This document shows positions 14,863 through 64,000 of a DNA stretch of 64,000 nucleotides, piece after piece. Position 1 is the stretch's first letter. The number at the start of each line of letters is the position of its first letter. The DNA comes from Urechidicola croceus (GTDB lineage Bacteria > Bacteroidota > Bacteroidia > Flavobacteriales > Flavobacteriaceae). A program made the translations under genes and the position numbers. The DNA is taken from NCBI RefSeq assembly GCF_001761325.1, contig NZ_CP017478.1, forward strand, positions 1,819,501-1,883,500. The letters run 5' to 3'. Below the pieces are notes generated by a model. That model ran no database searches and had not been told where the DNA came from. It saw nothing but the letters and a program-made list of their open reading frames with translations.

Positions 14863-14892
14863 AGGAAGGTTATTGATATTCATAACCTTCCT
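14863..14892 (-). terminator. Hairpin between the two GH16 genes
   Basis: Perfect 11-bp arms (14863-14873 and 14882-14892) enclose an 8-nt loop; on the minus strand the stem is followed by TTTTATAA. It sits between the stop of the large GH16 gene and the start of the small one, so it may reduce read-through and lower expression of the distal genes, or stabilise the 3' end of the susCD transcript. Confidence 0.6.
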
Positions 14893-14931
14893 ATTTAAAG
14901 AAAAACTAAAAAAAGTGACTAACTTAATTTT

Positions 14932-16611: not shown

Positions 16612-16623
16612 CTTTTTAATTTA

Positions 16624-18720: not shown

Positions 18721-18740
18721 AATTTGAGTGTTAGTTTTTA

Positions 18741-20201: not shown

Positions 20202-20214
20202 CTTATTCAGTATT

Positions 20215-37384: not shown

Positions 37385-37389
37385 TCTGA

Positions 37390-38277
37390 TTATTTAGTTG
37401 ATGTTCTAAAATTATCGTCCCATAATACCGAAACTTTATATTGTATTTTTTTACCTTTTCCATAATTACTTCGCGTTCTTAATTGAAGGTTATAAATAAA
37501 GGTTTCTTTTTGCTCAAAAAAACGTACTATTCTATTCCACCATCCTTTTTTAGCATCTGCTTCATCAAAATCTTTGGCACCTTCTTGAAGTCTTATAGGA
37601 CGTGATTCCCACCTAATATCAATCTTATTCCAAGATTTACCAAAATGTGCTCTTGTTTTAGAAATCTTACACTTAGAGTTTCCATATGTACTTATTGCAA
37701 TTGCATGCATTAAAGCATATCTACCTTGCTCCTTTTTCCCTTGTGCATAAGCCATTACTTCAAACGCGTTTGAACCTGATCCTTTTATACCTTCTCCTTC
37801 AAACACATTGTGCCATTTCCCATCGGCATCTAATTCTCCTTCACAATAATTTCCTGCTCGACCTTTTGATGCAATAATTCCATTTACATCCAGTTTTTGA
37901 GTTGGAGAATTGGTACCAACACCAATATTTCCTCTTCCTTTTTCAATAAATAGATCTGGTATTTTCGATTTACTTTCATTATCATCTCTATGTACATTAT
38001 TGATGGAAATTCCGCCAGAATCACCTTTAGAAATACGCATTACCCAAACTGGAAATTGATCATCTTTATCTTCAAAAAAACTAATTAGATTTCGCAATTC
38101 ATGCTTTTCTGCTGGATATATGAGTAATCCATCTTCATCATCTATATCTAATTTATCATCAGCCTTATTAAAAGTAGAATGAATTAACTTTTCAAAGTGA
38201 GTCTCGTTTGGAAGACTTCCTTTTTTAAAAAAAGTAATCAATTGTTTTCTATCAGTAAGGTCTTTCTTGTTTTTCAT
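37390..38277 (-). CDS. Putative eCIS fibre/receptor-binding protein
   Basis: A 295 aa protein with a short helical N-terminal region (DRKQLITFFKKGSLPNETHFEKLIHSTF), a middle segment with the IGVGTNSPTQKLDVNG motif, and a compact beta-rich C-terminal domain (about 140-295). The GVGT...PTQKLDV motif is common in trimeric tail-fibre and surface-adhesin stalks of Bacteroidota. I infer a fibre or spike tip that meets the target cell, with the N-terminal part binding the baseplate. It sits between the two large baseplate genes rather than beyond Pvc12 as in the Photorhabdus system. Trimerisation and target are unknown. Confidence 0.55.
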   Translation of the reverse strand: MKNKKDLTDRKQLITFFKKGSLPNETHFEKLIHSTFNKADDKLDIDDEDGLLIYPAEKHELRNLISFFEDKDDQFPVWVMRISKGDSGGISINNVHRDDNESKSKIPDLFIEKGRGNIGVGTNSPTQKLDVNGIIASKGRAGNYCEGELDADGKWHNVFEGEGIKGSGSNAFEVMAYAQGKKEQGRYALMHAIAISTYGNSKCKISKTRAHFGKSWNKIDIRWESRPIRLQEGAKDFDEADAKKGWWNRIVRFFEQKETFIYNLQLRTRSNYGKGKKIQYKVSVLWDDNFRTSTK

Positions 38278-38286
38278 TTTATTTTG

Positions 38287-51539: not shown

Positions 51540-53144
51540 ATGAGAACACAAAGCAATAAATCGACTGAGAATAAAAATCAATTAATTGCACCCAATGTAA
51601 CTCAAAAAAAAAGTGTTTCGAACCCTACTTTTCAGTTTGTTGACAATCGACCAGAGGCAATTATTCAGAGTAAGTTACAAAAAATGACTGAAAACTATTC
51701 CAAAAACAACATTCAAAAACAAGAATTAGAAGAAGAGGAATTATTACAAGGTAAATTTAAAACCACCCAACTACAAGGAATTGAAAATGAAGAATTACTT
51801 CAAGGTAAGTTTGAAACAATTCAGAAAAAAGAAAATAATACAGGTTTACCAGACAACTTAAAATCTGGAATTGAAAATATGTCGGGAATAGCAATGGATG
51901 ATGTTAAAGTTCACTACAATTCTGATAAACCATCTCAATTACAAGCGCATGCCTATGCTCAAGGAACTGATATTCACTTAGGTCCTGGACAAGAAAAACA
52001 TTTACCTCATGAGGCTTGGCATGTAGTACAGCAAAAACAAGGACGCGTAAAACCTACTATGCAAATGAAAGGTAAGATAAATATCAACGATGATGCTGGT
52101 TTAGAAAAAGAAGCAGATGTGATGGGAGCGAAAGCAGTTCAATTTTCATCAAAAGATTACAAAGGAGTGTTGCAAACAAAGAAAGACACTGGAGGAATAA
52201 ATACTAGTTCTTTAATCTCTGGTACAATTCAAAGAGCACCATGGGCAAATATTCCCGCTAAATTTAGAACAGATAATGGAATGGATAACGTTCCAAATTC
52301 TGAATATTTCGTAGGAACTACTAGCTACAAACGTTATGCTCCAATTAATGAAATTAGATCACCTGGACAAATATTTCATGAAGGCCCTAGGAGTTTTGTA
52401 TACATTAATAGTGGAGATAATGCAAATATAGCATATAAAAAAACTATTAAAGCTTTGCCAGATCAAAATAACAATCAGCGTATCAACCTTATAAATGGTA
52501 AAGAAAAAGTTTCGGCTTATTTAAGTCCTGCCAATGGTCGAGACGTATGGGATGGTGATGTAAATGATGATGGAACAGTTACTAGTAGGCACCCTGGGCA
52601 TACTGTAATAAATTTGGGACAAGTTCTTCCTAATTTGGACAATAAAGACTCTCAAAAATTAGCTCGATACAAACAAGAAGCAATCCACAAAGCTCAAATT
52701 GACGGTTTAATTGGTAGTGATGAAATTCTATTTGATCAAGTGTATGATTGGATAGATACAAACTACTCACATATTAAAGAGCAAGATCGTGATAATATAG
52801 GTATGAAATATTTATTAGACCATCCAGAAGTGTTTCAAGAAATACAAGACGCCAAAGATGCTGGACAAATGAAATATACTACTGAGAAATCAGTAGAAAA
52901 ACTATGGAATGAATGCCATATTTTGGAAAATATAGATAAAACAAATCCTGATAGAACTATAGCCTTTTATAAAAAGGTATCTATGTTGCAAGACTCAGAA
53001 AAAGATACAATATCTCTATTACGAAGATCACATATTAGTAGATTTTGGGTATCACTTGAATCTAGTTTGAAAACTAAGGTAATTAGTGCACTAAATAAAA
53101 ATGACACTGAAATGCTATTAGGTATCAAACAAATTTTCACATAG
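51540..53144 (+). CDS. DUF4157-domain putative eCIS cargo/effector
   Basis: A 534 aa protein probably packed into or delivered by the injection system. The N-terminal motif (residues 30-46) is shared with the cargo at 26460. A short repeat EELLQGKF occurs twice (about 67-91). The DUF4157 domain runs from about 104 to 200, with GIAMDDVKVHYNSDKP, the zinc motif HEAWH at 157-161 and NDDAGLEKEADVMG. DUF4157 is known as an eCIS-linked putative metallopeptidase, often in front of toxin domains. The C-terminal 300 residues are unique; DVWDGDVNDDGTVTSRHPGHTVI has acidic and His residues that could bind metal, but no toxin family is recognised. Confidence 0.78.
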   Translation: MRTQSNKSTENKNQLIAPNVTQKKSVSNPTFQFVDNRPEAIIQSKLQKMTENYSKNNIQKQELEEEELLQGKFKTTQLQGIENEELLQGKFETIQKKENNTGLPDNLKSGIENMSGIAMDDVKVHYNSDKPSQLQAHAYAQGTDIHLGPGQEKHLPHEAWHVVQQKQGRVKPTMQMKGKININDDAGLEKEADVMGAKAVQFSSKDYKGVLQTKKDTGGINTSSLISGTIQRAPWANIPAKFRTDNGMDNVPNSEYFVGTTSYKRYAPINEIRSPGQIFHEGPRSFVYINSGDNANIAYKKTIKALPDQNNNQRINLINGKEKVSAYLSPANGRDVWDGDVNDDGTVTSRHPGHTVINLGQVLPNLDNKDSQKLARYKQEAIHKAQIDGLIGSDEILFDQVYDWIDTNYSHIKEQDRDNIGMKYLLDHPEVFQEIQDAKDAGQMKYTTEKSVEKLWNECHILENIDKTNPDRTIAFYKKVSMLQDSEKDTISLLRRSHISRFWVSLESSLKTKVISALNKNDTEMLLGIKQIFT

Positions 53145-54399: not shown

Positions 54400-54430
54400 G
54401 GATAACCACAACAAAAAGTTGCGCTTATCC
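54400..54430 (+). terminator. Probable terminator hairpin after the channel-like gene
   Basis: Outer arms GGATAA/TTATCC and inner arms CAAC/GTTG around an AAAAA loop form an imperfect stem from 54400 to 54430. There is no long T-run after it, so termination may be inefficient. It is the last chromosomal element before the array. Confidence 0.4.
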
Positions 54431-54476
54431 GGAAAATATTAAACATAAACGAGTATATTTATACTCATATAACCAG

Positions 54477-54934
54477 TTCTCTTTAATGCTAAAAAACAAA
54501 ATTAAGCGGAATAACAAATAACAAAAAATCACTCAAATTTGGCAGATTTTTAGCAATTACAGCGGAATTGAAAGTTGTCACGAAAAAAAACTAAACAACG
54601 GAATTTTTGCCAGTCTTTGCGGAGTAAAAAGTAGAAACGGAAAACTCAACTTTGCGGAATTATAAGTTGCTGTGAAAAACTCAACTTTGCGGAATTGAAA
54701 GTTCGAGCGGAAAATTATAACGGAATGAAACTCACTCACGGCGGAATCTCATAACGGCGGATTTTCACTCAGAAACGGAAAAACCACTCAAAATACGCAC
54801 TAAAAGAGAACACTGTTTATATTCAATGCTTTACTTTTGGTCAATCCATAAAGTTTTTGCACTTTTATAACATCAGATTTTCCTAGCGGAAAATCTGCCG
54901 CGTACTTTTACGCACTGAAACATACACTAATCCG
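54477..54934 (+). mobile_element. Geneless cassette 1
   Basis: A 458 nt unit with core GTTCTCTTT (54476-54484) and matching inverse core AAAGAGAAC (54803-54811). There is no credible gene. The body consists of repeated CGGAA-centred elements such as GCGGAATTGAAAGTT. Its left junction has no upstream attC arm: the preceding sequence is chromosomal, with a small GAGTATA/TATACTC hairpin at 54451-54466. Confidence 0.7.
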
Positions 54935-54943
54935 TTGTGTGCA
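54803..54943 (+). repeat. attC-like site 1 (geneless family)
   Basis: The inverse core AAAGAGAAC opens and the core GTTGTGTGCA of the next unit closes an imperfect inverted repeat. Outer arms are GTTTATATTCAATGC and GCACTGAAACATACAC with one extra base on the 3' side. A strong inner hairpin is GATTTTCC/GGAAAATC. Mismatches are mostly A opposite C on this strand, that is T-G wobble on the other. Confidence 0.75.
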
Positions 54944-54956
54944 ATTTGAGTAAAAT

Positions 54957-54987
54957 TTTGCCATCATACCAATTTTTGGTATATTTG
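54957..54987 (+). promoter_or_regulatory. Promoter of the parDE cassette
   Basis: TTTG (54957-54960), 19 nt, then TATATTTG (54980-54987) match the -33 and -7 elements of Bacteroidota sigma-A. The -7 box ends 16 nt before the ATG at 55004. The promoter lies inside the cassette and would move with it. Confidence 0.6.
54966..54982. promoter_or_regulatory. Operator-like inverted repeat for ParD autoregulation
   Basis: ATACCAA-ttt-TTGGTAT is a perfect 7-bp inverted repeat lying between the -33 and -7 elements and overlapping the -7 box. ParD-type antitoxins with ParE usually repress their own promoter through such sites; binding here is inference. Confidence 0.5.
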
Positions 54988-55003
54988 AATAAATTTATGT
55001 CAA

Positions 55004-55255
55004 ATGAACAAAAACACATCAATATCACTCGGAAATTATTTTGACCAATTCGTTCAAAGCCGAATAAATGAAGGCAGGTTTAAAAACGTTAGTGAAGTAA
55101 TTCGTGCTGGACTTAGACTTTTAGAGGAAGAAGAAAGTAAAGTTATTGCTCTTAAAAACGCAATTCAAGAAGGAATAGACAGCGGAATTGCTCACGATTT
55201 TGACCCAAAGAAACATTTAGAATCTTTAAAAGCGAAAAAGCACTCGAATGGCTGA
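55004..55255 (+). CDS. parD: ParD-like antitoxin (cassette 2)
   Basis: An 83 aa ribbon-helix-helix antitoxin of the ParD/CC2985 type. The N-terminal segment NTSISLGNYFDQFVQSRINEGRFKNVSEVIRAGLRLLEEEE is the DNA-binding and dimerisation part; the C-terminal GIDSGIAHDFDPKKHLESLKAKKH wraps the toxin. It should neutralise the ParE product and repress the shared promoter. It overlaps the toxin gene by 8 nt, the usual coupling. A self-controlled toxin-antitoxin cassette is a known stabiliser of large cassette arrays. Confidence 0.9.
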   Translation: MNKNTSISLGNYFDQFVQSRINEGRFKNVSEVIRAGLRLLEEEESKVIALKNAIQEGIDSGIAHDFDPKKHLESLKAKKHSNG

Positions 55256-55547
55256 ATATAAACTGACCAATAAGGCTGTTGAGGATTTATCGAAGATTTG
55301 GGATTATACATTTGAGGTTTGGTCTGAAAAACAGGCTGACAAATATTACGATGGACTGATTTCTAACTGTGAAGAAATTGCGAGAAACCCAGAATTAGGA
55401 AAAAACTATAAAGGAATATCGAAACAACTTCTCGGAATTAAAGCAAATAGACACGTAATATTCTATAGAACGTTGGACAAAAATTATGTAGAAATTACAA
55501 GAATACTACACGAAAGGATGGATTTAAAGAAAAGAATAACCGAATAA
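55248..55547 (+). CDS. parE: ParE-like toxin of the RelE/ParE superfamily (cassette 2)
   Basis: A 99 aa toxin with the typical order YKLTNKAVEDLSKIWDYTFEVWSEKQADKYYDGL, then NPELGKNYKGISKQLLGIKANRHVIFYRTL and VEITRILHERMDL. ParE toxins usually inhibit DNA gyrase, whereas RelE relatives cut mRNA; sequence alone favours ParE because of the C-terminal RILHERMD motif and the ParD partner. It ends 3 nt before the inverse core of attC-like site 2, so gene and site are tightly packed. Confidence 0.9.
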   Translation: MAEYKLTNKAVEDLSKIWDYTFEVWSEKQADKYYDGLISNCEEIARNPELGKNYKGISKQLLGIKANRHVIFYRTLDKNYVEITRILHERMDLKKRITE

Positions 55548-55550
55548 AAC

Positions 55551-55687
55551 TGCACACAACAATGGCTATAAGTAATTGCTTGTTCTCGCCTACTTCTGAA
55601 AATCCTCTCGGATTTTCAGTTTGGTGTGTACTTGCAAAGTTTCGTGCTAACCCACGCAACTACTCATAGCCGAGACCGTTGGCAAAC
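55551..55687 (+). repeat. attC-like site 2 (GGCTAT family)
   Basis: Inverse core TGCACACAAC (55551-55560) is the exact complement of this cassette's core at 54934-54943. Arms GGCTATAAGTAATTGC and GCAACTACTCATAGCC pair except for two A-C positions. The unpaired spacers AAT and GAGACC are asymmetric, as in attC sites. An inner hairpin GAAAATCC/GGATTTTC is present. The core GTTGGCAAA closes the site. Confidence 0.8.
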
Positions 55688-55703
55688 ATTTAGCGGAACT
55701 AAA

Positions 55704-56120
55704 ATGAAACTAAAATATTCTGAATCTCACCCTTTGAAATCATACGAATTGAATGAACAATTCTTGACTAAAAGTGAATTTATTCAAAAGTTTGAAAATT
55801 TTAAATGGGAAAATTTACTGAAATTACAGTTGAGTGCAAATGACATCCAAATACATAATTCACCTTCTATAAATTTAAATGATAATGACGGAAAAGGAAT
55901 ATCAGTTTCAATAGTTGGCGAATTGAATGAGTACGAATTTTATGTTTGCTTTAAAAGACCAATAACTCGAAAAAAAAGTAAATGGCTTGGACTTATTAAA
56001 TACGATTTTTATGATAAAGACTTTTGTAGCGTAATTCCTGAACAAACGAAAAAAGATGCACTTGATGCATTTATTCTGTTTTACGATAGGAATTTTGAGG
56101 AATTGGAAAAAAAATGGTAA
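55704..56120 (+). CDS. Hypothetical protein (cassette 3)
   Basis: A 138 aa soluble protein of unknown function with mixed alpha/beta character (YEFYVCFKRPITRKKSKWLGLIKYDFYD). An upstream in-frame ATG at 55626 lies inside the attC-like site of the previous cassette; translation from there would cross the recombination point, so I place the start at 55704 (MKLKYSESHPLK), 26 nt inside the cassette. No promoter fits in the short leader, so expression probably depends on upstream cassettes. The gene ends 7 nt before the inverse core. Confidence 0.65.
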   Translation: MKLKYSESHPLKSYELNEQFLTKSEFIQKFENFKWENLLKLQLSANDIQIHNSPSINLNDNDGKGISVSIVGELNEYEFYVCFKRPITRKKSKWLGLIKYDFYDKDFCSVIPEQTKKDALDAFILFYDRNFEELEKKW

Positions 56121-56127
56121 AAAACGA

Positions 56128-56264
56128 TTTGCCAACAATGCATATATTTTATTGCTAGGTTCTAGCCTGCTTACGAATATTCCTGCGGAATATTCTATTC
56201 GGTTTTTATTTACTAATTTAGTGACTTAAACACGCAACAAACCATATGCTAAACCGTTGTATTT
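56128..56264 (+). repeat. attC-like site 3 (GCATAT family)
   Basis: Inverse core TTTGCCAAC (56128-56136) complements this cassette's core GTTGGCAAA at 55678. Arms GCATATATTTTATTGC and GCAACAAACCATATGC pair with three wobble-type mismatches. The inner hairpin GAATATTCC/GGAATATTC is perfect. The closing core is GTTGTATTT. Confidence 0.78.
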
Positions 56265-56691
56265 AATGCTTAAAACTAAATTACACGGAAAAAAATTGAC
56301 TAAATCAACTCCTACTCTACAAATTTGAGCAATTACTGCGGAATTGAAAGTTGTTACGGAAAAAATCAAAACTACGGAGAAAAATAACGGCGGAGATTTT
56401 GCCAATCTTTACGGAATTAAAAGTTGCTGCGAAAAACTCAACTTTGCGGAATTGAAAGTTGAAACGGAAAATTTTAACGGAATAAAACTCACTCACAGCG
56501 GAATCTCATAATTGCGGATTTTTACTCAGAAACGGAAAAACCAATCAAAATACGCACTAAAATACAACACTGTTTATATTCAATGCTTTACTTTTGGTCA
56601 ATCCACAAAGTTTTCGCACTTTTATATCGTTAGATTTTCCTAGCGGAAAATCTGCCGCGTACTTTTACGCACTGAAACATACACTAAACCG
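56257..56691 (+). mobile_element. Geneless cassette 4
   Basis: A 435 nt unit with core GTTGTATTT (56256-56264) and inverse core AAATACAAC (56560-56568). The body holds about ten CGGAA-type elements, with no open frame of convincing composition. It is a diverged relative of cassettes 1, 5, 11, 12 and 13. Confidence 0.7.
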
Positions 56692-56699
56692 TTGCCTTT
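56560..56699 (+). repeat. attC-like site 4 (geneless family)
   Basis: Opens with AAATACAAC and closes with GTTGCCTTT. The outer arms and the inner GATTTTCC/GGAAAATC hairpin are as in site 1; the 3' spacer reads TAAACC. Confidence 0.75.
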
Positions 56700-57119
56700 A
56701 ATGCTTAAAACAAAATTTTCGGAATTATAAATATTAAAAATTCAATCAAATTTTGAGCAATTACAGCGGAATTGAAAGTTACAACGGAAAAAATCAAAAC
56801 AGCGGAGAAAAATAACAACGGAATTTTTGCCTGTTTTTGCGGAATGAAAAGTTGAAACGGAAAACTCAACTTTGCGGAATTGAAAGTTGGAGCGGAAAAT
56901 TATAACGGAATGAAACTCACTCACGGCGGAATCTCATAACGGCGGATTTTCACTCAGAATCGAAAAATAACACTCAAATGCGCACTAAAAGGCAACACTG
57001 TTTATATTCAATGCTTTACTTTTGGTCAAGTTCAAAAGTTTTCGCATTTTTATATCGTTAGATTTTCCTAGCGGAAAATCTGCCGCGTACTTTTACGCAC
57101 TGAAACATACACTAAACCG
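56692..57119 (+). mobile_element. Geneless cassette 5
   Basis: A 428 nt unit with core GTTGCCTTT (56691-56699) and inverse core AAAGGCAAC (56988-56996). It is almost identical to cassette 12 (61453-61880), with the same length and only scattered changes, mainly in the attC-like part. This points to recent duplication at two separate positions in the array. Confidence 0.72.
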
Positions 57120-57127
57120 TTGTGCGT
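56988..57127 (+). repeat. attC-like site 5 (geneless family)
   Basis: Opens with AAAGGCAAC and closes with GTTGTGCGT. The arms are as in site 1. The central part differs from the other copies (GGTCAAGTTCAAAAG, TATATCGTTAG), showing that the loop region is free to vary. Confidence 0.75.
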
Positions 57128-57142
57128 CATTTAAGAAAAACC

Positions 57143-57781
57143 GTGAGATACAAGAAAATAAGAGGACTAAAACGAAAGGTTGCTAATATTCAGAATTGGA
57201 TAAATGAATATTTGGAACTAAATGTTGAACACTTGAATGAATATAAATACGAATACGCAAAAGTTTATGTTGACCCTTGGGACAATCTGACTTTGACCGA
57301 CAGTCATATTCCTGAACCGAAAGGAAAAGCGAAAAAAGAAATTCTAAACGGACTAGAAAAAATTTATGACAGTTGGAAAACTGAACTGGAAAAACTAAAC
57401 AAACCGTATTATTTAAAAATATGGCTTTACGAGCCAAGGATTTCAAAATCTCAAGTTGTCTGTGCAATTGATGAAAAAATTGAGTACTACGAAAACATAT
57501 TTGAAAAAGCGGATTTTAAACCAAATGACTCGTCATTTACAAATCAATTGAGTTCTGAATTTAAATGGCAACCGAATATTGACGAAGAACCTTATTGGGA
57601 AAGTGATTTACTTTGGCCAATTGACCAATACGAAAGAATAGAAGACAGTTATTCTGACAGAAGACTTTTGAACAAACTGAAAAAAGGGAATTTTAAGAAT
57701 AAAGAAATTGACAGTCCAAATGGAAATAAAGACACGATTTATTTCTTGCCAAAAGGTAAAATTTGGGTTGGAGAAAAATAA
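57143..57781 (+). CDS. Hypothetical protein (cassette 6)
   Basis: About 212 aa, soluble, rich in aromatic and charged residues (EYKYEYAKVYVDPWDNLTL, YLKIWLYEPRISKSQVVCAI). No family is recognised. The frame is open back to a GTG at 57122, which overlaps the recombination core; a second GTG at 57143 keeps the gene fully clear of the core and is my choice, without strong support. The compact gene ends 6 nt before the inverse core of its attC-like site, as expected for a cassette gene. Confidence 0.6.
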   Translation: MRYKKIRGLKRKVANIQNWINEYLELNVEHLNEYKYEYAKVYVDPWDNLTLTDSHIPEPKGKAKKEILNGLEKIYDSWKTELEKLNKPYYLKIWLYEPRISKSQVVCAIDEKIEYYENIFEKADFKPNDSSFTNQLSSEFKWQPNIDEEPYWESDLLWPIDQYERIEDSYSDRRLLNKLKKGNFKNKEIDSPNGNKDTIYFLPKGKIWVGEK

Positions 57782-57787
57782 AAACGA

Positions 57788-57923
57788 ACGCACAACAATG
57801 GCTATAAGTAATTGCTTGTTCTCGCCTACTTCTGAAAATCCTTGCGGATTTTCAGTTTGGTGTGTACTTGCAAAGTTAAGTGCTAACCCACGCAACTACT
57901 CATAGCCGAGACCGTTGGCAGTA
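57788..57923 (+). repeat. attC-like site 6 (GGCTAT family)
   Basis: Inverse core ACGCACAAC complements the core GTTGTGCGT at 57119. The arms are identical to those of site 2, and the loop differs by only a few bases although the two cassettes carry unrelated genes. It closes with GTTGGCAGTA. Confidence 0.8.
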
Positions 57924-57931
57924 ATTTGAGA

Positions 57932-58612
57932 ATGAGCAACAAAAAGGAACATAGCGTTTATATATCGAACAAAAACAACTGTCTTTTTACTGAACAATTT
58001 GACAGTTGGGAACGTTTCGATTGGAATGAAGATATGCCACCATATTTTAAAAGGTTAAACGAAATTAATGATGACAGGTCATTTGTCATTTTAGCCTGTT
58101 CTGTTATGGAATATCAAATTGATAGATTTTTAAAAACCTTTATCCCTAAACCAGAGATTATAATTAACGACAATGCTAACCTGAATAATAAAATTCTAAT
58201 TATTCAAGCATTTAATTTAATTCCACCTCATTTTGTTCAAATAATGAACACTATTAGAAATATTAGAAACGACTTTGCTCATAATCTAAATATTGACTCG
58301 TTTTCCGATTCAAACAAATCGGAAAAATTACCAAAGCACATTAAAGAAATGGAAAGATTATGGGAAAAATTTAAAAATGATATGTGCTATTGGAATAAAG
58401 GAGAATCTTTAAGATTAATGTATAAAGACATATGGAGAGTTTGTGTGGAAGGATTGAGAGTTTATGAATCCAATGTTCGACTTTTTAGACAGGAAACTGA
58501 AAAAGTTGAATTTATCGAACATTTACAGAAATTATCAACTGAATTAGCGGACAAAAGAGAAAAAGATGAACAAGAGGCTGTATTGAAAATATATATGCCT
58601 TGGAGGAAATAA
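57932..58612 (+). CDS. HEPN/MltR-like protein (cassette 7)
   Basis: A 226 aa helical protein. Residues 48-120 resemble the MltR/HEPN-like fold: SFVILACSVMEYQIDRFLKTF, KILIIQAFNLIPPHF, then IRNIRNDFAHNLNID. The RNDFAH segment (Arg112, His117) fits the Rx4-6H motif of HEPN RNases, common in defence and toxin systems. Whether it is an active RNase is not known, and no partner nucleotidyltransferase is present in the cassette. I use the ATG at 57932; a TTG two codons upstream is possible. The gene ends 3 nt before the inverse core. Confidence 0.6.
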   Translation: MSNKKEHSVYISNKNNCLFTEQFDSWERFDWNEDMPPYFKRLNEINDDRSFVILACSVMEYQIDRFLKTFIPKPEIIINDNANLNNKILIIQAFNLIPPHFVQIMNTIRNIRNDFAHNLNIDSFSDSNKSEKLPKHIKEMERLWEKFKNDMCYWNKGESLRLMYKDIWRVCVEGLRVYESNVRLFRQETEKVEFIEHLQKLSTELADKREKDEQEAVLKIYMPWRK

Positions 58613-58615
58613 AAA

Positions 58616-58754
58616 CTACTGCCAACACCGTATATAATTTATTGCTAGTTCTAGCCTACTTACGAAAATCCTTGCGGATTTTCTATTCGGTTTTTATTTG
58701 CTAAATTAGGTGCTTAAACCACGCAACAAACCATATACAAACACGTTGTAAACC
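58616..58754 (+). repeat. attC-like site 7 (GCATAT family)
   Basis: Inverse core TACTGCCAAC is the exact complement of the core GTTGGCAGTA at 57914. Arms GTATATAATTTATTGC and GCAACAAACCATATAC have three wobble-type mismatches. The closing core GTTGTAAACC is preceded by CA rather than the usual CC. Confidence 0.78.
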
Positions 58755-58757
58755 ATT

Positions 58758-59240
58758 ATGAAATACCGAATATTTATGTTTCTATCATTGATGAATTTTT
58801 TAGGTTTTGGACAAGAAAAAAAAGAAACTGAATTAAAAACTGAAAGCGAACTAAAATTAGAAGAAATATTTTTTATTGGCGACAATAATTTCTTTTTCGA
58901 CAAATCTAAATGTGTTGTAGAACATAATAATAACAAAGTGACTGATTTTACATTTGTTGGAAACAAAGAGATTTTTGAAAAACTCGATGAAAAGGATGAT
59001 TTTGAATTTAAATATTTTATTTATCCACCTGAACTGCGAATTCGAAATTTGACTTTGACAAAAAATATGGAAACTCGAATTACGAAAAACAATCATTTAG
59101 ACTCGGAAGTAGGTATTTATTTTGGAGAACACGGATTATTTGAGGGAGATTTTTTTATAAAAAATGGATGGATTAGAATTATTGGATTTGGCGAGGTTTA
59201 TGGAAAAAAATATCCCATAAAAATTAATTTTAAATTATAG
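58758..59240 (+). CDS. Secreted or periplasmic hypothetical protein (cassette 8)
   Basis: A 160 aa protein with a short signal peptide (MKYRIFMFLSLMNFLGFGQ), so it is exported. The mature part has an acidic Lys/Glu start (KKETELKTESELKLEE) and then beta-strands ending in KKYPIKINFKL. No family is recognised. The ATG lies 13 nt after the GTT core, leaving no room for a promoter within the cassette. The gene stops 42 nt before the inverse core. Confidence 0.62.
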   Translation: MKYRIFMFLSLMNFLGFGQEKKETELKTESELKLEEIFFIGDNNFFFDKSKCVVEHNNNKVTDFTFVGNKEIFEKLDEKDDFEFKYFIYPPELRIRNLTLTKNMETRITKNNHLDSEVGIYFGEHGLFEGDFFIKNGWIRIIGFGEVYGKKYPIKINFKL

Positions 59241-59282
59241 AAAACCGACTTTTGATAAGAACAGTATTTGAAATAAAAAAAC

Positions 59283-59420
59283 GGTTTACAACAATGTATA
59301 AAAATAATTACGGTTTAGTGCTTAATCAAAGATCGTTGCAATTTTGTTACGTCTGATTTTCCTGCGGAAAATCCTCGCACACAAAACCGCAACTATTCTT
59401 ATACGAGACCGTTGTATGCA
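59283..59420 (+). repeat. attC-like site 8 (GTATAA family)
   Basis: Inverse core GGTTTACAAC exactly complements the core GTTGTAAACC at 58745. Arms GTATAAAAATAATTACGG and CCGCAACTATTCTTATAC pair with wobble-type mismatches; the spacers are AAT and GAGACC. The inner hairpin GATTTTCC/GGAAAATC is present. It closes with GTTGTATGCA. Confidence 0.78.
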
Positions 59421-59438
59421 AGCTGAAAAACTGAACTT

Positions 59439-59690
59439 TTGAGAAAAATATTTTACATAATCGGACTTTGTTTTTCGTTTTTTGGAGTTCCGCTTTTTTA
59501 TTTTATGGCTATAAATACAGGAGTAAGTCTGAAATATGAAACGGAATTTGGAGAATGTATTTCTCAAGTTTCAGGAATTGACTTGTGTAAACAACAAGAT
59601 TTATTTCTCGGACTGACATACTCTTGCGGAATTATATTTCTGATTTTAATAAGCATTTTAATTTACAAAACAGTTAAATGGAAAACATAA
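59439..59690 (+). CDS. Small two-helix membrane protein (cassette 9)
   Basis: An 83 aa protein with two membrane segments (about 5-25 and 55-76) and a short extracytoplasmic loop with two cysteines (GECISQVSGIDLCKQQ). The frame has only a TTG near the front (59439); the next ATG is at codon 23 inside the first membrane helix, so TTG is preferred. It overlaps the following gene by 13 nt. Function unknown; a membrane protein and partner on one cassette could be an effector-immunity or transport pair, but this is a guess. Confidence 0.5.
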   Translation: MRKIFYIIGLCFSFFGVPLFYFMAINTGVSLKYETEFGECISQVSGIDLCKQQDLFLGLTYSCGIIFLILISILIYKTVKWKT

Positions 59691-59917
59691 GCGAATTTTT
59701 ATACGGAAAAGACTATTCGGATAAACTCGACAAGTTTAATAAAGCGATTGACCAAATTCACGCTGAATACGAAGGAGAATTTGACACAAGTGGCTACTTT
59801 ACAATGCAAACTCACAATCAAAAAGGAGAAGTGAAATTGGACTTTGACCAGGACAAAAACATTCCGGCTGAATTAAAAGAAAACGTATTGAAAGCGTTAA
59901 AAGAAATATGGAAATAA
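59678..59917 (+). CDS. Small acidic hypothetical protein (cassette 9)
   Basis: A 79 aa soluble protein (MENISEFLYGKDYSDKL...) with helices at both ends and a central GYFTMQTHNQKGEVKLDFD strand pair. It is acidic, and its start lies within the end of the membrane protein gene, so translation is likely coupled. It ends 5 nt before the inverse core of site 9. No family is recognised. Confidence 0.55.
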   Translation: MENISEFLYGKDYSDKLDKFNKAIDQIHAEYEGEFDTSGYFTMQTHNQKGEVKLDFDQDKNIPAELKENVLKALKEIWK

Positions 59918-59922
59918 AAGCC

Positions 59923-60061
59923 TGCATACAACAATGTATAACCGCAATTACGGCGGATTCGACTACGTCCGAATCCACTCGGAATTGCTAACGTCAGTAC
60001 TTAACCGAAAATCATTAACTTTAATCCCGTAACTGACGGTTATACGAGACCGTTGTAAGTA
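59923..60061 (+). repeat. attC-like site 9 (GTATAA family, diverged centre)
   Basis: Inverse core TGCATACAAC is the exact complement of GTTGTATGCA at 59411. Arms GTATAACCGCAATTACGG and CCGTAACTGACGGTTATAC pair with one extra base and one wobble. The inner part is unlike the other sites (GGATTCG/CGAATCC) but the core geometry is unchanged. It closes with GTTGTAAGTA. Confidence 0.8.
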
Positions 60062-60084
60062 ATGCCGAAAAACCCAGAAACCAA

Positions 60085-60879
60085 GTGAATAAAACGATAT
60101 TTGAAATTACCAAAATGGATTGTCCTTCAGAGGAAAATCTTATCCGAATGAAATTGGACGGAATTTCAAGCATTGCGAATTTGGACTTTGATATTCCTAA
60201 TCGAAAATTGACCGTTTTTCACAGCGGAGAAATTGACCAAATCGAAAAGTCCGTTATCGAATTGAATTTAGGTGGAAAGAAAATCTCAACGGAAAAAACC
60301 GACCAAACGGAATTTAAAGAAAACGAAAATCAAAAAAAACTTCTTTGGTCTGTACTTATCATAAATTTTGCGTTTTTCATAATCGAAATGACAACAGGAA
60401 TTATCTCAAAATCTATGGGACTTGTTGCCGATAGTTTAGATATGCTTGCGGACAGTTTTGTGTACGGAATTAGTTTGTTTGCGGTTGGCGGAACAGTAAT
60501 AAAGAAAAAACGGATTGCCAAACTTGCTGGATATTTTCAAATAATACTTGCGATTATTGGATTTGTAGAAGTCTTGAGAAGATTTTTCGGAAACGAGAAA
60601 CTTCCCGATTTTTCGACAATGATTATTGTTTCGATTTTTGCACTTATCGCAAACGGAATTTGTCTTTATATTTTGCAAAAGTCAAAGAGCAAAGAAGAAG
60701 CACATATGAAAGCGAGTATGATTTTTACTTCGAATGACGTGATTATCAATTTGGGTGTAATAATTGCAGGAATTTTAGTGCATTATTTGAGTTCTAATAA
60801 ACCTGATTTGATTATCGGAACAATTGTTTTTGCATTGGTAATTCAAGGAGCATTTCGGATTTTGAAATTAAGTAAGTGA
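60085..60879 (+). CDS. Cation transporter with HMA-like N-terminal domain (cassette 10)
   Basis: A 264 aa CDF-family-like metal transporter. Residues 1-70 form a ferredoxin-like domain like those of copper chaperones, but the CxxC metal site is changed (TKMDCPSEEN has one cysteine). Six membrane segments follow; KSMGLVADSLDMLADSFVYG carries the Asp residues of the transport site. There is no long cytosolic C-terminal domain. Zinc, cobalt or another divalent cation is plausible. GTG at 60085 is the start. It is the only metabolic-type gene in the array; it ends 13 nt before the inverse core. Confidence 0.75.
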   Translation: MNKTIFEITKMDCPSEENLIRMKLDGISSIANLDFDIPNRKLTVFHSGEIDQIEKSVIELNLGGKKISTEKTDQTEFKENENQKKLLWSVLIINFAFFIIEMTTGIISKSMGLVADSLDMLADSFVYGISLFAVGGTVIKKKRIAKLAGYFQIILAIIGFVEVLRRFFGNEKLPDFSTMIIVSIFALIANGICLYILQKSKSKEEAHMKASMIFTSNDVIINLGVIIAGILVHYLSSNKPDLIIGTIVFALVIQGAFRILKLSK

Positions 60880-60892
60880 ACGAAAAAAGCAC

Positions 60893-61028
60893 TACTTACA
60901 ACAACGTGTATAATTAATGGCTGGTTCTCGCCTACTTACGAAAATCCTCGCGGATTTTCTATTCGGTTTTTATTTGCTAAATTAGGTGCTTAAACACGCC
61001 ACTAATCATACACAAAACCGTTGCCTTT
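60893..61028 (+). repeat. attC-like site 10
   Basis: Inverse core TACTTACAAC is the exact complement of GTTGTAAGTA at 60052. Arms GTGTATAATTAATGGC and GCCACTAATCATACAC have two wobble-type mismatches. The central part is like sites 3 and 7. It closes with GTTGCCTTT. Confidence 0.78.
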
Positions 61029-61452
61029 AATGCTTAAAACAAAATTTTTCGGAATTATAAGTATTAAAAATTCAATTAAATTTTGAGCAATTACAGCGGA
61101 ATTGAAAGTTACTACGGAAAAAATCAAAACGATGGAATTTTTGCCAGTCTTTGCGGAATGAAAAGTTGAAACGGAAAAATCAATTTTACGGAATTATAAG
61201 TTGTTGTGAAAAACTCAACTTTGCGGAATTGAAAGTTGGAGCGGAAAATTATAACGGAATGAAACTCACTCACGGCGGATTTTCACTCAGAATAGAAAAA
61301 TAACACTCAAATGCGCACTAAAAGGCAACACTGTTTATATTCAATGCTTTACTTTTGGTCAATCCACAAAGTTTTCGCACTTTTATAACATCAGATTTTC
61401 CTAGCGGAAAATCTGCCGCGTACTTTTACGCACTGAAACATACACTAATCCG
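61021..61452 (+). mobile_element. Geneless cassette 11
   Basis: A 432 nt unit, core GTTGCCTTT (61020-61028), inverse core AAAGGCAAC (61321-61329). It shares the CGGAA-rich body with cassettes 5 and 12 but has an extra CGGAATTATAAGTTGTTGTG element and lacks one segment, so copies differ by gain and loss of short repeats. Confidence 0.7.
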
Positions 61453-61460
61453 TTGCCTTT
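61321..61460 (+). repeat. attC-like site 11 (geneless family)
   Basis: Opens with AAAGGCAAC and closes with GTTGCCTTT, so here the two flanking cores happen to match each other because neighbouring cassettes 11 and 12 are of the same type. The arms are as in site 1. Confidence 0.75.
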
Positions 61461-61880
61461 AATGCTTAAAACAAAATTTTCGGAATTATAAATATTAAAA
61501 ATTCAATCAAATTTTGAGCAATTACAGCGGAATTGAAAGTTACAACGGAAAAAATCAAAACAGCGGAGAAAAATAACAACGGAATTTTTGCCTGTCTTTG
61601 CGGAATGAAAAGTTGAAACGGAAAACTCAACTTTGCGGAATTGAAAGTTGGAGCGGAAAATTATAACGGAATGAAACTCACTCACGGCGGAATCTCATAA
61701 CGGCGGATTTTCACTCAGAATCGAAAAATAACACTCAAATGCGCACTAAAAGGCAACACTGTTTATATTCAATGCTTTACTTTTGGTCAATCCACAAAGT
61801 TTTCGCACTTTTATAACATCAGATTTTCCTAGCGGAAAATCTGCCGCGTACTTTTACGCACTGAAACATACACTAATCCG
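61453..61880 (+). mobile_element. Geneless cassette 12
   Basis: A 428 nt unit nearly identical to cassette 5. Core GTTGCCTTT (61452-61460), inverse core AAAGGCAAC (61749-61757). About a dozen CGGAA/CGGAG elements are spaced 10-30 nt apart. A 60-codon antisense frame exists but is judged to be an artefact of the repeats. Confidence 0.72.
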
Positions 61881-61888
61881 TTGGGTTT
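61749..61888 (+). repeat. attC-like site 12 (geneless family)
   Basis: Opens with AAAGGCAAC and closes with GTTGGGTTT. The arms and inner GATTTTCC/GGAAAATC hairpin are as in site 1. Confidence 0.75.
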
Positions 61889-62339
61889 AATGCTGACAAA
61901 CAAATCTACGCTGAATATAAAACTTTAAAAACTCACTCAAATTTGACAGATTTTTAGCAATTACTGCGGAATTGAAAGTTGTCACGAAAAAAAAACTAAA
62001 CAACGGAATTTTTGCCAGTCTTTGCGGAATGAAAAGTTGAAACGGAAAACTCAACTTTGCGGAATTATAAGTTGCTGTGAAAAACTCAACTTTGCGGAAT
62101 TGAAAGTTGGAACGGAAAATTTTAACGGAATGAAACTCACTCACGGCTGAATCTCATAACGGCGGATTTTTACTCAGACTCAGAAAATAACAATGAAAAA
62201 CGCACTAAAACCCAACACTGTTTATATTCAATGCTTTACTTTTGGTCAATCCACAAAGTTTTCGCACTTTTATAACATCAGATTTTCCTAGCGGAAAATC
62301 TGCCGCGTACTTTTACGCACTGAAACATACACTAATCCG
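61881..62339 (+). mobile_element. Geneless cassette 13
   Basis: A 459 nt unit most similar to cassette 1 in its body (same TTTGACAGATTTTTAGCAAT segment), but its core GTTGGGTTT (61880-61888) and inverse core AAACCCAAC (62208-62216) both differ from those of cassette 1 (GTTCTCTTT/AAAGAGAAC). The two ends changed together. Confidence 0.72.
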
Positions 62340-62348
62340 TTAGGCAAA
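62208..62348 (+). repeat. attC-like site 13 (geneless family)
   Basis: Opens with AAACCCAAC and closes with GTTAGGCAAA, the one core in the array that fits the classical GTTRRRY consensus exactly. The arms are as in site 1. Confidence 0.75.
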
Positions 62349-62367
62349 ATTTAGACCAGATAAACAA

Positions 62368-63579
62368 TTGAAACGAAATCTAAAATCATACACAAACTTT
62401 CTGAATGAATTATTGGTTCTTGAAAGGTTCTACTTTGCCACCAAATATTCATATGAACAAACTGAAAATGTTATAAATTTCGTTAGGAACAAGAAGCTGA
62501 AATTTGCGCAGGAAACAGAATTTGGACTGACTGTCGACAAACCAAACCCTTTTAGCGTAAAAAAAAGAGCTAGAACAACTCGTAGAAACATTATACTTGA
62601 AATTATTTATGTTAGAATAGTTTCTGCTTTGGAGGTTCTTTTGGTTGATTTAATAAGGGATGTTTTTCTAATAACAAAAGACCCTTTCAAAAGACAAGAC
62701 ATAAAGCATCAATTTTCACAAGGAGAATTATTATCTCTTGATTCCACTACTTCCATTTTGAATATGATAATCAACAAAGAATGCAGGAAATTGAGTAGTG
62801 GTGGTTACAACGACATAGTAAAATATTATAAAAGACATTTTAATATTGATATTGGTAGCTTTCATCCAGGTAATAAAAGAATGGAAGAAATTCACGATAG
62901 ACGTCATCTACTAGTCCATAAACTTGGAAAAACGGATAAAGCTTACAGGAAAAAATACAACACTACTAGTACTTCTGTCTTGATAAATGAAGAATACCTA
63001 CTAGAAGCTATCTCTGATTTAAGAACTTTCTCTTCACTTTTAAAAAATCAATTAGATTATCGGTTAAATAACGATTTTACAAAAACCGACAAAAAGGAAT
63101 TCAAGTCTAAAAAAACTAGAATTATAGAATTAACTCATCCCGAAAATTATGAATTTGAGTTTCTATCCAAAGATTATGAGTTTTGGGCAGGAGATGAATT
63201 TTGTAAATCAAATAGCATTGTCAAAAAAGTTGACAAAATTGATTCAGAAACTACAAAACTAGAGGTGTTTGGAGAGACTCAAGTTTTGAGGGCATTTTTA
63301 CGTCTAATTCGAAGAAGATGTAAAAAAAACGGCTTCGAATTTAAAGAGAAAAAGCAATCGAATAATGGAACTAACGTAGAGTACTCTCAGAAGTTATTAG
63401 ACGAAGACTTAATTTTAAAAATTAAGAATGAACTTCCTGAACAACCTTGGGAAAAAGGAATTCATAAAATAGTAGCTAAAAAACTTAATATCTCAAATAA
63501 AATAAGTTCAAGCGGAATCCAGCAACTTATAGCAAATGGAGATTTTAAGATGCAAATAGATGGAAAAATAATTGAATAA
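62368..63579 (+). CDS. HEPN-motif hypothetical protein (cassette 14)
   Basis: A 403 aa protein, the largest in the array. Residues 70-225 are helical and contain EEIHDRRHLLVHKLGKTDKAYRKKY: the RRHLLVH segment (Arg179, His184) fits the Rx4-6H HEPN motif, and the following KLGKxDxxY is common in HEPN proteins of unknown type. The C-terminal 170 residues are basic with a possible DNA/RNA-binding role (VLRAFLRLIRRRCKKNGFEF, IHKIVAKKLNISNKISSSGIQQLI). A phage-defence or toxin role is possible but unproven. The start is a TTG at 62368; no ATG is close. It ends 4 nt before the inverse core. Confidence 0.6.
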   Translation: MKRNLKSYTNFLNELLVLERFYFATKYSYEQTENVINFVRNKKLKFAQETEFGLTVDKPNPFSVKKRARTTRRNIILEIIYVRIVSALEVLLVDLIRDVFLITKDPFKRQDIKHQFSQGELLSLDSTTSILNMIINKECRKLSSGGYNDIVKYYKRHFNIDIGSFHPGNKRMEEIHDRRHLLVHKLGKTDKAYRKKYNTTSTSVLINEEYLLEAISDLRTFSSLLKNQLDYRLNNDFTKTDKKEFKSKKTRIIELTHPENYEFEFLSKDYEFWAGDEFCKSNSIVKKVDKIDSETTKLEVFGETQVLRAFLRLIRRRCKKNGFEFKEKKQSNNGTNVEYSQKLLDEDLILKIKNELPEQPWEKGIHKIVAKKLNISNKISSSGIQQLIANGDFKMQIDGKIIE

Positions 63580-63583
63580 AAAC

Positions 63584-63720
63584 TTTGCCTAACAATGGCT
63601 ATAGTTCATTGCTTCGGATTTTCTGCCGAAAATCCTCGCACTTTTACTATCTTGGTTTCTTAATCGGAAAATCCTTGCGGATTTTCACGCAACGAAACCA
63701 TAGCCGAGACCGTTGGTTTC
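63584..63720 (+). repeat. attC-like site 14 (GGCTAT family)
   Basis: Inverse core TTTGCCTAAC is the exact complement of GTTAGGCAAA at 62339. Arms GGCTATAGTTCATTGC and GCAACGAAACCATAGCC have one extra 3' base and two wobble-type mismatches. Two nested inner hairpins of CGGATTTTC type are present. It closes with GTTGGTTTC. Confidence 0.78.
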
Positions 63721-64000
63721 AATAACTCCGAATGATAGAACGCTGATTGAAAGTTACGTTTGAATTGGATATTTAAAAGCAATTATTACACGGAATTTTA
63801 ATCAGATTTTGAAAATTACTCTTGTGGAATTTAAGCCAGTTTGCGGAATTGATAAACTGAACCTAAAGATTAATATGGAAGAAAATATATTGCGGATTTT
63901 TCCACTCGAACGGAATTAAAAAATTACAACGGAATTTTACTCGGCTGAATAAAATTTAAATGGAATCTGAACGTGATTACTCAAATGTGTCGTTACAAAA
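63713..64000 (+). mobile_element. Partial cassette 15 (probably geneless)
   Basis: Begins at core GTTGGTTTC (63712-63720) and runs off the window. It contains diverged CGGAATT and ATTGAAAGTT elements like the geneless cassettes and no credible gene. Its attC-like end, expected to start with GAAACCAAC, is outside the window. Confidence 0.5.

What the first reader, a model, noticed from the sequence alone, without database searches (positions are those of the whole stretch)
54476..64000. Integron-like cassette array in a Bacteroidota chromosome, proven by covarying cassette ends
Fifteen GTT cores divide the region into 14 complete units. In every unit the first 9-10 bases complement the inverse core at the same unit's 3' end: GTTCTCTTT/AAAGAGAAC, GTTGTGTGCA/TGCACACAAC, GTTGGCAAA/TTTGCCAAC, GTTGTATTT/AAATACAAC, GTTGCCTTT/AAAGGCAAC, GTTGTGCGT/ACGCACAAC, GTTGGCAGTA/TACTGCCAAC, GTTGTAAACC/GGTTTACAAC, GTTGTATGCA/TGCATACAAC, GTTGTAAGTA/TACTTACAAC, GTTGGGTTT/AAACCCAAC, GTTAGGCAAA/TTTGCCTAAC. 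Within one site the two flanking cores come from different cassettes and usually pair only over AAC/GTT. So pairing follows the cassette, not the site, as expected if circles form by cutting after the G of GTT. Genes are all in one direction and packed against the sites. The cores mostly depart from the classical GTTRRRY.
Basis: partly seen in the sequence, partly recalled or inferred. Interest (0 to 1): 0.88.

Follow-up and report, generated by a model that had tools for sequence, protein, structure and literature searches.

The report
Overlooked integron lineage in marine flavobacteria
This stretch is a train of swappable gene cassettes, like those that spread genes in other bacteria by integrons, but it appears to be run by a different recombinase and to use a different kind of cassette end, so it points to a separate integron lineage in flavobacteria that present definitions may pass over.

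Summary
In detail: 14 of 14 complete units have ends that pair with each other over 9-10 bases; shuffled sequence gives no such unit. The array runs past the window. It starts at 54401-54478 with a copy of the last 13 codons of a recombinase gene plus its attI-like site; the site's only other copy lies beside an intact 394-aa tyrosine recombinase 1.6 Mb away, heading an array of about 97 sites. Thirteen sets of identical units exist, five of them shared by both arrays. The sites fold as 16-bp hairpins with two near-invariant A.C mismatches on the top strand, which are T.G pairs on the bottom strand: a bottom-strand attC design. In 80 named loci all 181 detected sites lie 3' of the recombinase, and an attI-like motif follows it in 64. 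The recombinase lacks the IntI-specific insertion, and 21 of 116 cores fit GTTRRRY. It works like an integron but fails the IntI tests: a distinct lineage in Flavobacteriaceae and beyond. Sites of this type also occur in a Polaribacter phage. Recombination was not tested here.

The parts
54401..54442 (+). Relic of the 3' end of the integron recombinase gene (last 13 codons and stop)
   Evidence: Aligned without gaps to the 3' end of the intact gene (G000:C1:242035-243219, -); relic and attI-like site together have one mismatch up to the core
54443..54478 (+). attI-like site ending in ATATAAC-CA-GTT
   Evidence: A 24-base piece of it (54455-54478) is found twice in the genome with up to 3 mismatches allowed, each time at the head of an array; the motif follows the recombinase stop codon in 64 of 80 named loci
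54476..54933 (+). Cassette 1, of the repeat family without a clear gene; site AAC 54809 - GTT 54934
54934..55677 (+). Cassette 2, ParD antitoxin (55004-55255) and ParE toxin (55248-55547); site AAC 55558 - GTT 55678
55678..56255 (+). Cassette 3, ORF ending at 56120, no Pfam match; site AAC 56134 - GTT 56256
56256..56690 (+). Cassette 4, without a clear gene; identical copy in the other array (G000:221896); site AAC 56566 - GTT 56691
56691..57118 (+). Cassette 5, without a clear gene; identical copy further down the same array (G000:1886415); site AAC 56994 - GTT 57119
57119..57913 (+). Cassette 6, 219-aa ORF 57122-57781; two identical copies in the other array; site AAC 57794 - GTT 57914
57914..58744 (+). 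Cassette 7, 228-aa ORF 57926-58612; site AAC 58624 - GTT 58745
58745..59410 (+). Cassette 8, 160-aa ORF 58758-59240; site AAC 59290 - GTT 59411
59411..60051 (+). Cassette 9, ORFs 59439-59690 and 59678-59917; two identical copies in the other array; site AAC 59930 - GTT 60052
60052..61019 (+). Cassette 10, cation-efflux protein 60085-60879; identical copy in the other array and an 89% homologue at attI of another species with both ends changed in step; site AAC 60900 - GTT 61020
61020..61451 (+). Cassette 11, without a clear gene; site AAC 61327 - GTT 61452
61452..61879 (+). Cassette 12, without a clear gene; site AAC 61755 - GTT 61880
61880..62338 (+). Cassette 13, without a clear gene; identical copy in the other array (G000:198021); site AAC 62214 - GTT 62339
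62339..63711 (+). Cassette 14, 403-aa ORF 62368-63579; site AAC 63591 - GTT 63712
63712..64000 (+). Cassette 15, cut by the window end; sites go on to about G000:1896750

Best explanation
The region is the head of a secondary cassette array of a chromosomal integron-like system. A 394-aa tyrosine recombinase (gene at G000:C1:242035-243219, minus strand) is inferred to act in trans. It would bind the folded bottom strand of each cassette's site: AAC/GTT core, an asymmetric 3-against-6-nt spacer, and a 16-bp stem whose positions 7 and 12 are T.G on the bottom strand. It would cut at the GTT core and join cassettes to one another (excision) or to the attI-like ATATAAC-NN-GTT site that follows the recombinase gene (insertion). 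In the excised circle the cassette's own start core returns beside its own site and completes a 9-10-bp stem, which explains why pairing follows the cassette and not the site. The window array carries its own attI copy and a scrap of the recombinase gene, so it most likely arose from duplication or breakage of a complete platform and is served by the intact recombinase elsewhere. Shown: anatomy, shared attI-like site, synteny with the recombinase, strand asymmetry, identical cassettes in both arrays. Inferred: catalysis, exact cut position, single-stranded substrate, origin of the second array.
For: Own-end pairing 14 of 14 in the window and 102 of 116 at 9 or more bases in the two arrays, absent in shuffles. 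138 sites in the genome, most in two blocks. attI-like site plus recombinase relic at the array start; the site occurs twice, both times at array heads. 13 sets of identical units covering 29 of 116, five sets shared by both arrays, usually with different neighbours on at least one side. In 80 named loci all 181 sites are 3' of the recombinase, 180 on its strand (read from the table; 150 of 150 aligned rows by script, 0 sites among those rows in 578 kb of 5' sequence). attI-like motif in 64 of 80. Bottom strand more stable in 84 of 86 circle forms and 83 of 86 integrated forms. Stem covariation score 0.383 against 0.082 in shuffles. All 12 relatives with a recombinase 45% or more identical have sites, and 6 of 6 further ones in the order survey; there sites occur in 29 of 51 genomes with a recombinase match at E 1e-60 or better and in 22 of 145 without. 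Motif residues that I take as the catalytic R, K, H-R, H and Y (assignment recalled) are conserved.
Against: No recombination was observed; the recombinase, cut site and single-stranded substrate are inferred. 12 of 116 units do not show own-end pairing; several of these contain a site that the scanner missed or look chimeric, but I did not resolve all. 33 of 80 named loci show no site; 29 of them have under 1500 b of 3' sequence, 4 have more. The link is loose at wider range: 22 of 51 genomes with a recombinase match lack detected sites and 22 of 145 without one have them, often one site only; among the 27 other relatives 15 have sites without a close recombinase. Identical cassettes could also arise by homologous recombination between arrays; several identical pairs have one similar flank (69-99%). 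The strand test is partly circular: my scanner favoured bottom-strand wobbles slightly, and the sites of relatives were found and aligned with a model trained on own sites.
Confidence: 0.9

Rival explanations
1. The array is an inert tandem repeat family: units multiply by replication slippage, unequal crossing-over and homologous recombination between similar repeats, and no site-specific recombinase is involved.
For: 47 of 116 units belong to one family without a clear gene, 73-87% alike between core types (one representative each), suitable for homologous exchange; two of the 47 have unequal cores, as chimeras would.
Against: Coding cassettes of unrelated content share only the site class; identical units sit between different neighbours in arrays 1.6 Mb apart; core bases covary at both ends of one cassette between species and in 45 of 47 members of the family over 5 core types; sites lie on one side and one strand of a recombinase in the 47 named loci that have them.
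Confidence: 0.05
2. A true IntI integron of a known kind, with attC sites that are merely divergent.
For: The recombinase scores 208.7 bits with the IntI model TIGR02249, above XerC and XerD; with 2 Xer rows as outgroup, IntI and the new family fall on one side, support 100/99; IntI4 is among the best structural matches. A published assay reports that IntI1 recombines one of two tested sites of Polaribacter phage P12002L, bottom strand only (PMC9892861, section 3.4 read), and that phage has sites of the new type; which site was tested I could not map.
Against: Below the curated cut-off of 265 bits; the roughly 40-residue IntI-specific insertion is absent in all 23 new-family rows and present in all 6 IntI rows; about 95 residues are added at the N-terminus; six loci with true IntI from the phylum show no site of this type; 21 of 116 cores fit GTTRRRY.
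Confidence: 0.04
3. A wandering repeat element that uses XerC/XerD of the host, with the adjacent recombinase irrelevant.
For: Two Xer-like recombinases are present in the genome.
Against: A dedicated recombinase is linked to the sites on a fixed side and strand, and its attI-like site heads both arrays.
Confidence: 0.01

Closest known systems
Sedentary chromosomal integrons (IntI, attI, attC arrays)
   Same: Recombinase plus attI-like site plus long array of cassettes in one direction, a toxin-antitoxin cassette, AAC...GTT boundaries, bottom-strand hairpin with asymmetric spacer, cassette start complementary to its own inverse core.
   Different: Recombinase lacks the IntI-specific insertion and has an N-terminal extension; cores mostly not GTTRRRY; 9-10-bp covarying outer stem; two fixed T.G wobbles, while a conserved extrahelical base as in classical attC was not found; in most loci seen the recombinase is read in the same direction as the cassettes.
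CALIN (cluster of attC sites lacking an integron integrase)
   Same: The window array has sites and cassettes but no intact recombinase beside it. One published CALIN, in Polaribacter phage P12002L (PMC9892861), lies in a genome where the new site type is found.
   Different: It keeps an attI-like site and a scrap of the recombinase gene, and an intact recombinase exists in the same genome.
XerA / 'site-specific tyrosine recombinase/integron integrase' (NCBIfam NF040815, PDB 5hxy)
   Same: Best family and structure match of the recombinase by score (223.2 bits, cut-off 220).
   Different: XerA resolves chromosome dimers (recalled); here the gene heads a cassette array and has an extra N-terminal domain.

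Membership tests
Integron (IntI-type) | Integrase over the curated IntI cut-off (TIGR02249) | tested here: not met
   208.7 bits against 265; 0 of 12 matches in the own genome over the cut-off
Integron (IntI-type) | IntI-specific additional domain in the catalytic domain | tested here: not met
   Alignment: insertion absent in 23 of 23 new-family rows, present in 6 of 6 IntI rows; 21 against 64 residues relative to IntI4 2a3v
Integron (IntI-type) | attI site next to the integrase | tested here: met
   ATATAAC-NN-GTT-like motif 3' of the gene in 64 of 80 named loci; the first cassette core is fused to it. Position and motif only; function not tested
Integron (IntI-type) | Tandem array of cassettes each ending in an attC-like site | tested here: met
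   138 sites in the genome; 116 units parsed
Integron (IntI-type) | R boxes RYYYAAC / GTTRRRY | tested here: not met
   21 of 116 cores fit GTTRRRY; AAC and GTT themselves are nearly invariant, which the model and search partly impose
Integron (IntI-type) | Bottom-strand fold more stable than top strand | tested here: met
   84 of 86 circle forms and 83 of 86 integrated forms; wobbles that pair only on the bottom strand 72 against 1 (own), 144 against 5 (relatives)
Integron (IntI-type) | Conserved extrahelical bases in the stem | tested here: inconclusive
   14 bulged bases, all T, over 33 own stems, so not in every stem; instead positions 7 and 12 are A.C on top (T.G on bottom) in 31 and 33 of 33
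Integron (IntI-type) | Whole-cassette movement | tested here: inconclusive
   Identical units with different neighbours at two or three places; movement itself was not watched and close strains were not compared
Integron (IntI-type) | Integrase-catalysed attI x attC recombination | not testable with these tools
   needs a bench assay
CALIN | Two or more attC sites without a neighbouring integrase | tested here: inconclusive
   Window array: 14 complete units and only a 13-codon recombinase relic at its head; whether the sites count as attC for IntegronFinder or HattCI was not tested, their models are not on hand
XerA (NF040815) | Score over the curated cut-off | tested here: met
   223.2 bits against 220; the model name already includes 'integron integrase', so it does not settle function

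The most novel reading that the evidence does not exclude
Bacteroidota carry a second, separate lineage of integrons, whose sites were found in 51 of 196 genomes sampled from the order and whose recombinases act on folded single-stranded sites without the domain held to be essential in IntI. They would read strand polarity from two fixed T.G wobbles and read the core by pairing rather than by sequence. The lineage may be sister to IntI or preserve the state before IntI gained its insertion.
Probability: 0.55. Interest if true: 0.93.

Novelty: new variant of a known kind. Interest (0 to 1): 0.86.

Why it matters
Integrons are defined and searched for by IntI and its attC consensus. The IntegronFinder 2.0 paper reports for Bacteroidetes only In0 elements earlier and one complete integron in Salinibacter (passages), and a Tenacibaculum genome was reported free of integrons with that program (passages), while two other Tenacibaculum species here carry this system. 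Against full novelty: another paper lists Bacteroidota among phyla where integrons have been detected (PMC9668308, passage). If the system is active, a large reservoir of mobile genes in marine flavobacteria has been overlooked. It would make two questions testable: whether the IntI-specific domain is needed for single-strand cassette recombination, and how integrons arose from Xer-like recombinases. The covarying cores pose a clear puzzle: how do two ends, hundreds of bases apart on the linear cassette, change together?

Tried and rejected
Rfam at gathering thresholds: 0 matches in the window. No recombinase ORF lies just upstream of the window array: the nearest ORF is a 382-aa protein with membrane-like stretches, read by eye. 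The 403-aa recombinase-like ORF in L009 (16201-17412, -) beyond the far end of the window array was set aside because it is on the other strand; it was not tested further. Plasmids: 359 records match the recombinase at E 1e-30 or better, all under 60% identity, best about 38%; the records were not searched for sites. Phages: 18 records; the Polaribacter phage Freya integrase looks like an ordinary phage integrase by its neighbours. Polaribacter phage P12002L, met in a paper, was scanned with R1: 8 matches at E below 1, 7 of them below 1e-4. One alignment had one wrongly bounded row and was replaced. The tree has only two, long-branched Xer rows, so the root and the order of IntI and the new family are open; holding the new family together is not rejected (p-AU 0.668). 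IntegronFinder and HattCI could not be run. Pfam gives only weak matches that might concern the N-terminal domain (DUF5710 in 11 of 60 members, best E 0.0039; HARP in 4 of 60, best E 0.012), so no claim is made. Literature: 10 searches in open-access PMC only; their listings and the passages I opened show no description of this system, but preprints and most subscription papers are not held, so 'not in print' is not claimed. I saw passages of ten papers and one whole section of PMC9892861; no paper was read whole.

Rows dropped before counts: own stems, 116 of the 118 candidate sites of arrays A and B (gap under 130) give 33 distinct stems, all used; relatives, 75 of 80 rows of alignment A3 had findable AAC and GTT, 68 distinct stems, 66 used (score floor). 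Fold energies: 111 of 116 units (long units or wide gaps left out), 86 distinct. The ORF count leaves out the gene-less family and units over 2300 bp. Cassette 1 of the window starts at attI and is in the 14 but not in the 116. The attI regular expression fixes part of its own last 11 columns, so only the columns before them are unbiased. Genome-wide site counts score only part of the first-look candidates (150 of 3370; 16 or fewer a genome) and are lower bounds. The 'order' and 'phylum' surveys are samples (196 and 296 genomes).


Full report
What is there. The window is G000:C1:1819501-1883500 of a 3.43-Mb single-contig genome; the named genomes with the most similar recombinases are Lutibacter. 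From 54476 to the window end, 15 GTT cores bound 14 complete units. In all 14 the first 9-10 bases pair with the unit's own end. Between AAC and the next GTT lie 117-122 bases with a constant plan: AAC, 3 nt, a 16-bp stem arm, a variable middle, the other arm, 6 nt, GTT. A scanner that ignores the variable core bases finds exactly these 14 sites on the + strand and none elsewhere in the window; 100 shuffles of the region give a mean of 0.03.

The array goes on. Sites continue to about G000:1896750, and a 628-bp unit occurs there twice with two other cassettes in between and different flanks. A covariance model of the sites (R1) finds 138 sites in the genome; by my count of its table 97 lie in one block, 163.9-241.4 kb on the minus strand, and 27 in a second, 1874.3-1896.8 kb on the plus strand, the window array.

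The recombinase. At the head of the larger block stands a 394-aa tyrosine recombinase, G000:C1:242035-243219 (-), read in the same direction as the cassettes. It scores 223.2 bits with NF040815 (XerA / 'integron integrase', cut-off 220), 208.7 with the IntI model (cut-off 265) and 189.6 with XerD (cut-off 329.6). The residues that I take as catalytic are conserved. The insertion that marks IntI is absent in all 23 rows of the new family and present in six IntI from the same phylum; against IntI4 (2a3v) the corresponding stretch is 21 instead of 64 residues. A model of a Lutibacter relative (L060; mean pLDDT 87.1, pTM 0.65) shows an added N-terminal domain of strands and helices (residues 10-77) before the usual two domains; its best structural matches by E-value are XerA, then an archaeal Xer and IntI4.

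The window array has lost its own recombinase. Window 54401-54478 aligns without gaps, with one mismatch, to the last 13 codons of the intact gene plus the sequence that follows it up to the first core. A 24-base piece of this attI-like sequence occurs twice in the genome, both times at the head of an array. In 80 named loci a motif of the form ATATAAC-NN-GTT follows the recombinase stop codon in 64; in 50 of these the GTT begins 23-42 bases after the stop.

Linkage in other species. In those 80 loci (the best 80 of at least 582 relatives found) R1 gives 181 sites at E 0.01 or better; all lie 3' of the recombinase and 180 are on its strand (the exception is the reverse reading of a site also found on the plus strand) (table read by eye). 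For the 150 aligned rows a script gives 150 of 150 at 3' and 0 in 578 kb of 5' sequence; 25 of 80 contigs end within 700 b after the gene and none begins within 700 b before it, as a repetitive array would cause. 47 of 80 loci have a site; of the 41 with 1500 b or more of 3' sequence, 37 do. Among 40 relatives (own genome included) 28 have sites: 12 of 13 others in the genus, 10 of 11 in other genera of the family, 5 of 15 in other families of the order. All 12 relatives with a recombinase 45% or more identical have sites, and so do 15 of the other 27. In a sample of the order 51 of 196 genomes have sites (E 1e-6) and 51 of 196 a recombinase match (E 1e-60); the 6 genomes besides the own with 45% or more identity all have sites; overall sites occur in 29 of 51 genomes with and 22 of 145 without a match, so the looser matches are not a reliable marker. 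Some distant recombinases (33-39%) also head arrays, for example in G155 and G019, and in G014 and G254 the recombinase lies on the strand opposite to the array. In a sample of the phylum true IntI over the cut-off occur in 84 of 296 genomes, of which one (G253) is listed in the own class; six such IntI loci gave no site of this type. G254 has both a true IntI and the new system.

The sites look like bottom-strand attC. Among 33 distinct own stems, mismatches that become G.T pairs on the bottom strand number 72, those that would be G.T on the top strand 1; in relatives (66 stems) 144 against 5. Positions 7 and 12 of the stem are A opposite C in 31 and 33 of 33 own stems and in 58 and 64 of 66 relative stems. 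My scanner favoured bottom wobbles slightly and R1 was trained on own sites, so the excess is somewhat inflated. On the 150 best sites of the named loci, found and aligned by R1, two stem columns are non-standard on top in 128 and 149 of 150 while the rest of the stem covaries (14 of 19 pairs with changes on both sides; score 0.383 against 0.082 shuffled and at most 0.065 when slid). With DNA parameters the bottom strand is the more stable one in 84 of 86 circle forms and 83 of 86 integrated forms, and on the bottom strand the circle form is more stable than the integrated form in 78 of 86.

Evidence for movement of whole units. Thirteen sets of identical units cover 29 of 116 parsed units; five of the sets (641, 795, 968, 435 and 459 bp) span both arrays. 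The 100-base flanks of the 641-, 788-, 968- and 628-bp units are 50-62% alike; other sets have one more similar flank, such as the 795-bp unit (left 93-97%, right 53-63%). The efflux cassette at 60052-61019 has an 89% homologue in a Flavobacteriales genome (L089) directly at attI; its two ends have changed together, from GTTGTAAGTA/TACTTACAAC to GTTGTGGTTA/TAACCACAAC. Within the gene-less family, 45 of 47 units have matching cores at both ends over five core types, though representatives of different types are only 73-87% alike. This is covariation of ends within cassette lineages, and I cannot explain how both ends change.

A phage with the same sites. While checking a paper on phage integrons I scanned its Polaribacter phage P12002L: R1 gives 8 matches, seven at E 9.4e-6 or better, around methyltransferase genes. 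Seven of the eight are more stable on the bottom strand, and the unit around one methyltransferase gene has own ends that pair over 8 bases (GTTACCTA/TAGGTAAC, read). That paper calls the array a CALIN and reports that IntI1 recombines one of two tested sites of this phage, the bottom strand only (PMC9892861). If the working site is one of these, the site type is a real bottom-strand substrate, and IntI1 can use it; I could not map which site it was. This supports the mechanism and at the same time narrows the distance to classical attC. It did not change my odds, since the IntI tests of the recombinase are unaffected.

Reading. The parts of an integron are present: recombinase, attI-like site, array, strand-marked folded sites, one-way cassettes, a toxin-antitoxin cassette. 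But three features that define IntI integrons fail: IntI score, IntI-specific domain and GTTRRRY core. In classical sites a conserved extrahelical G sets strand choice (PMC2727003, passages), and extrahelical bases are contacted by IntI (PMC3053210, passages); here two fixed wobbles might play that part. The 2021 survey of tyrosine recombinases calls the insertion essential but 'not fully conserved' in its integron-like subgroup (PMC8138268, passages), so some of these proteins may already lie in that subgroup. I therefore call it a new variant of a known kind.

Limits. No recombination was observed here, the crossover position within GTT is inferred from classical integrons, the root of the recombinase tree is open, strains of one species were not compared, and the literature library lacks preprints and most subscription journals.

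Noticed in passing
window about 27000-53144: A cluster that looks like an extracellular contractile injection system (sheath- and tube-like proteins, AAA+ ATPase 50002-51354, and a protein at 51540-53144 with a DUF4157-like motif); recalled from sequence features, not searched.
   Followed up: no
window 14084-23262: Two GH16-like secreted proteins, SusD- and SusC-like proteins in a row: a polysaccharide-utilisation locus by recall.
   Followed up: no
L009:6783-8035 and L009:11247-12236: IS3-like transposase genes inside a cassette of the array and an IS110-like gene beyond it (names recalled); the IS-bearing cassette has unequal cores at its ends (GTTGTATTT and GTTCTCTTT), as recombination between IS copies could give.
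   Followed up: partly
window 54476-54933, 56256-57118, 61020-62338 and many in the sister array: A cassette family without a clear gene makes up 47 of 116 units, 45 of them under 500 bp; longest ATG ORF 51 aa, though GTG or TTG ORFs up to 85 aa exist on the other strand. Function unknown.
   Followed up: partly
L042 (G014:C13:50000-69900): Beside sites of the usual length there are four copies of a shorter site (77 nt between AAC and GTT) with a stem of another sequence: perhaps a second site class in that genus.
   Followed up: no
L145 and L146 (G254): One genome of another class of the phylum holds both a true IntI over the cut-off and an array of the new type with its own recombinase.
   Followed up: partly
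recombinase residues 1-95: N-terminal domain; weak Pfam matches to DUF5710 (11 of 60) and HARP (4 of 60), places not shown for them; if it is HARP-like it might bind fork or hairpin DNA.
   Followed up: partly
G000:C1:216278-216480 and 1896550-1896752: Two sites with a longer middle (185 nt between AAC and GTT) and the same inverse core, one inside the sister array and one at the far end of the window array.
   Followed up: no
L160 (Polaribacter phage P12002L, record 31112-39715): Sites of the new type in a lytic phage, three of them short (about 50 nt between AAC and GTT), on the strand opposite to the neighbouring genes.
   Followed up: partly
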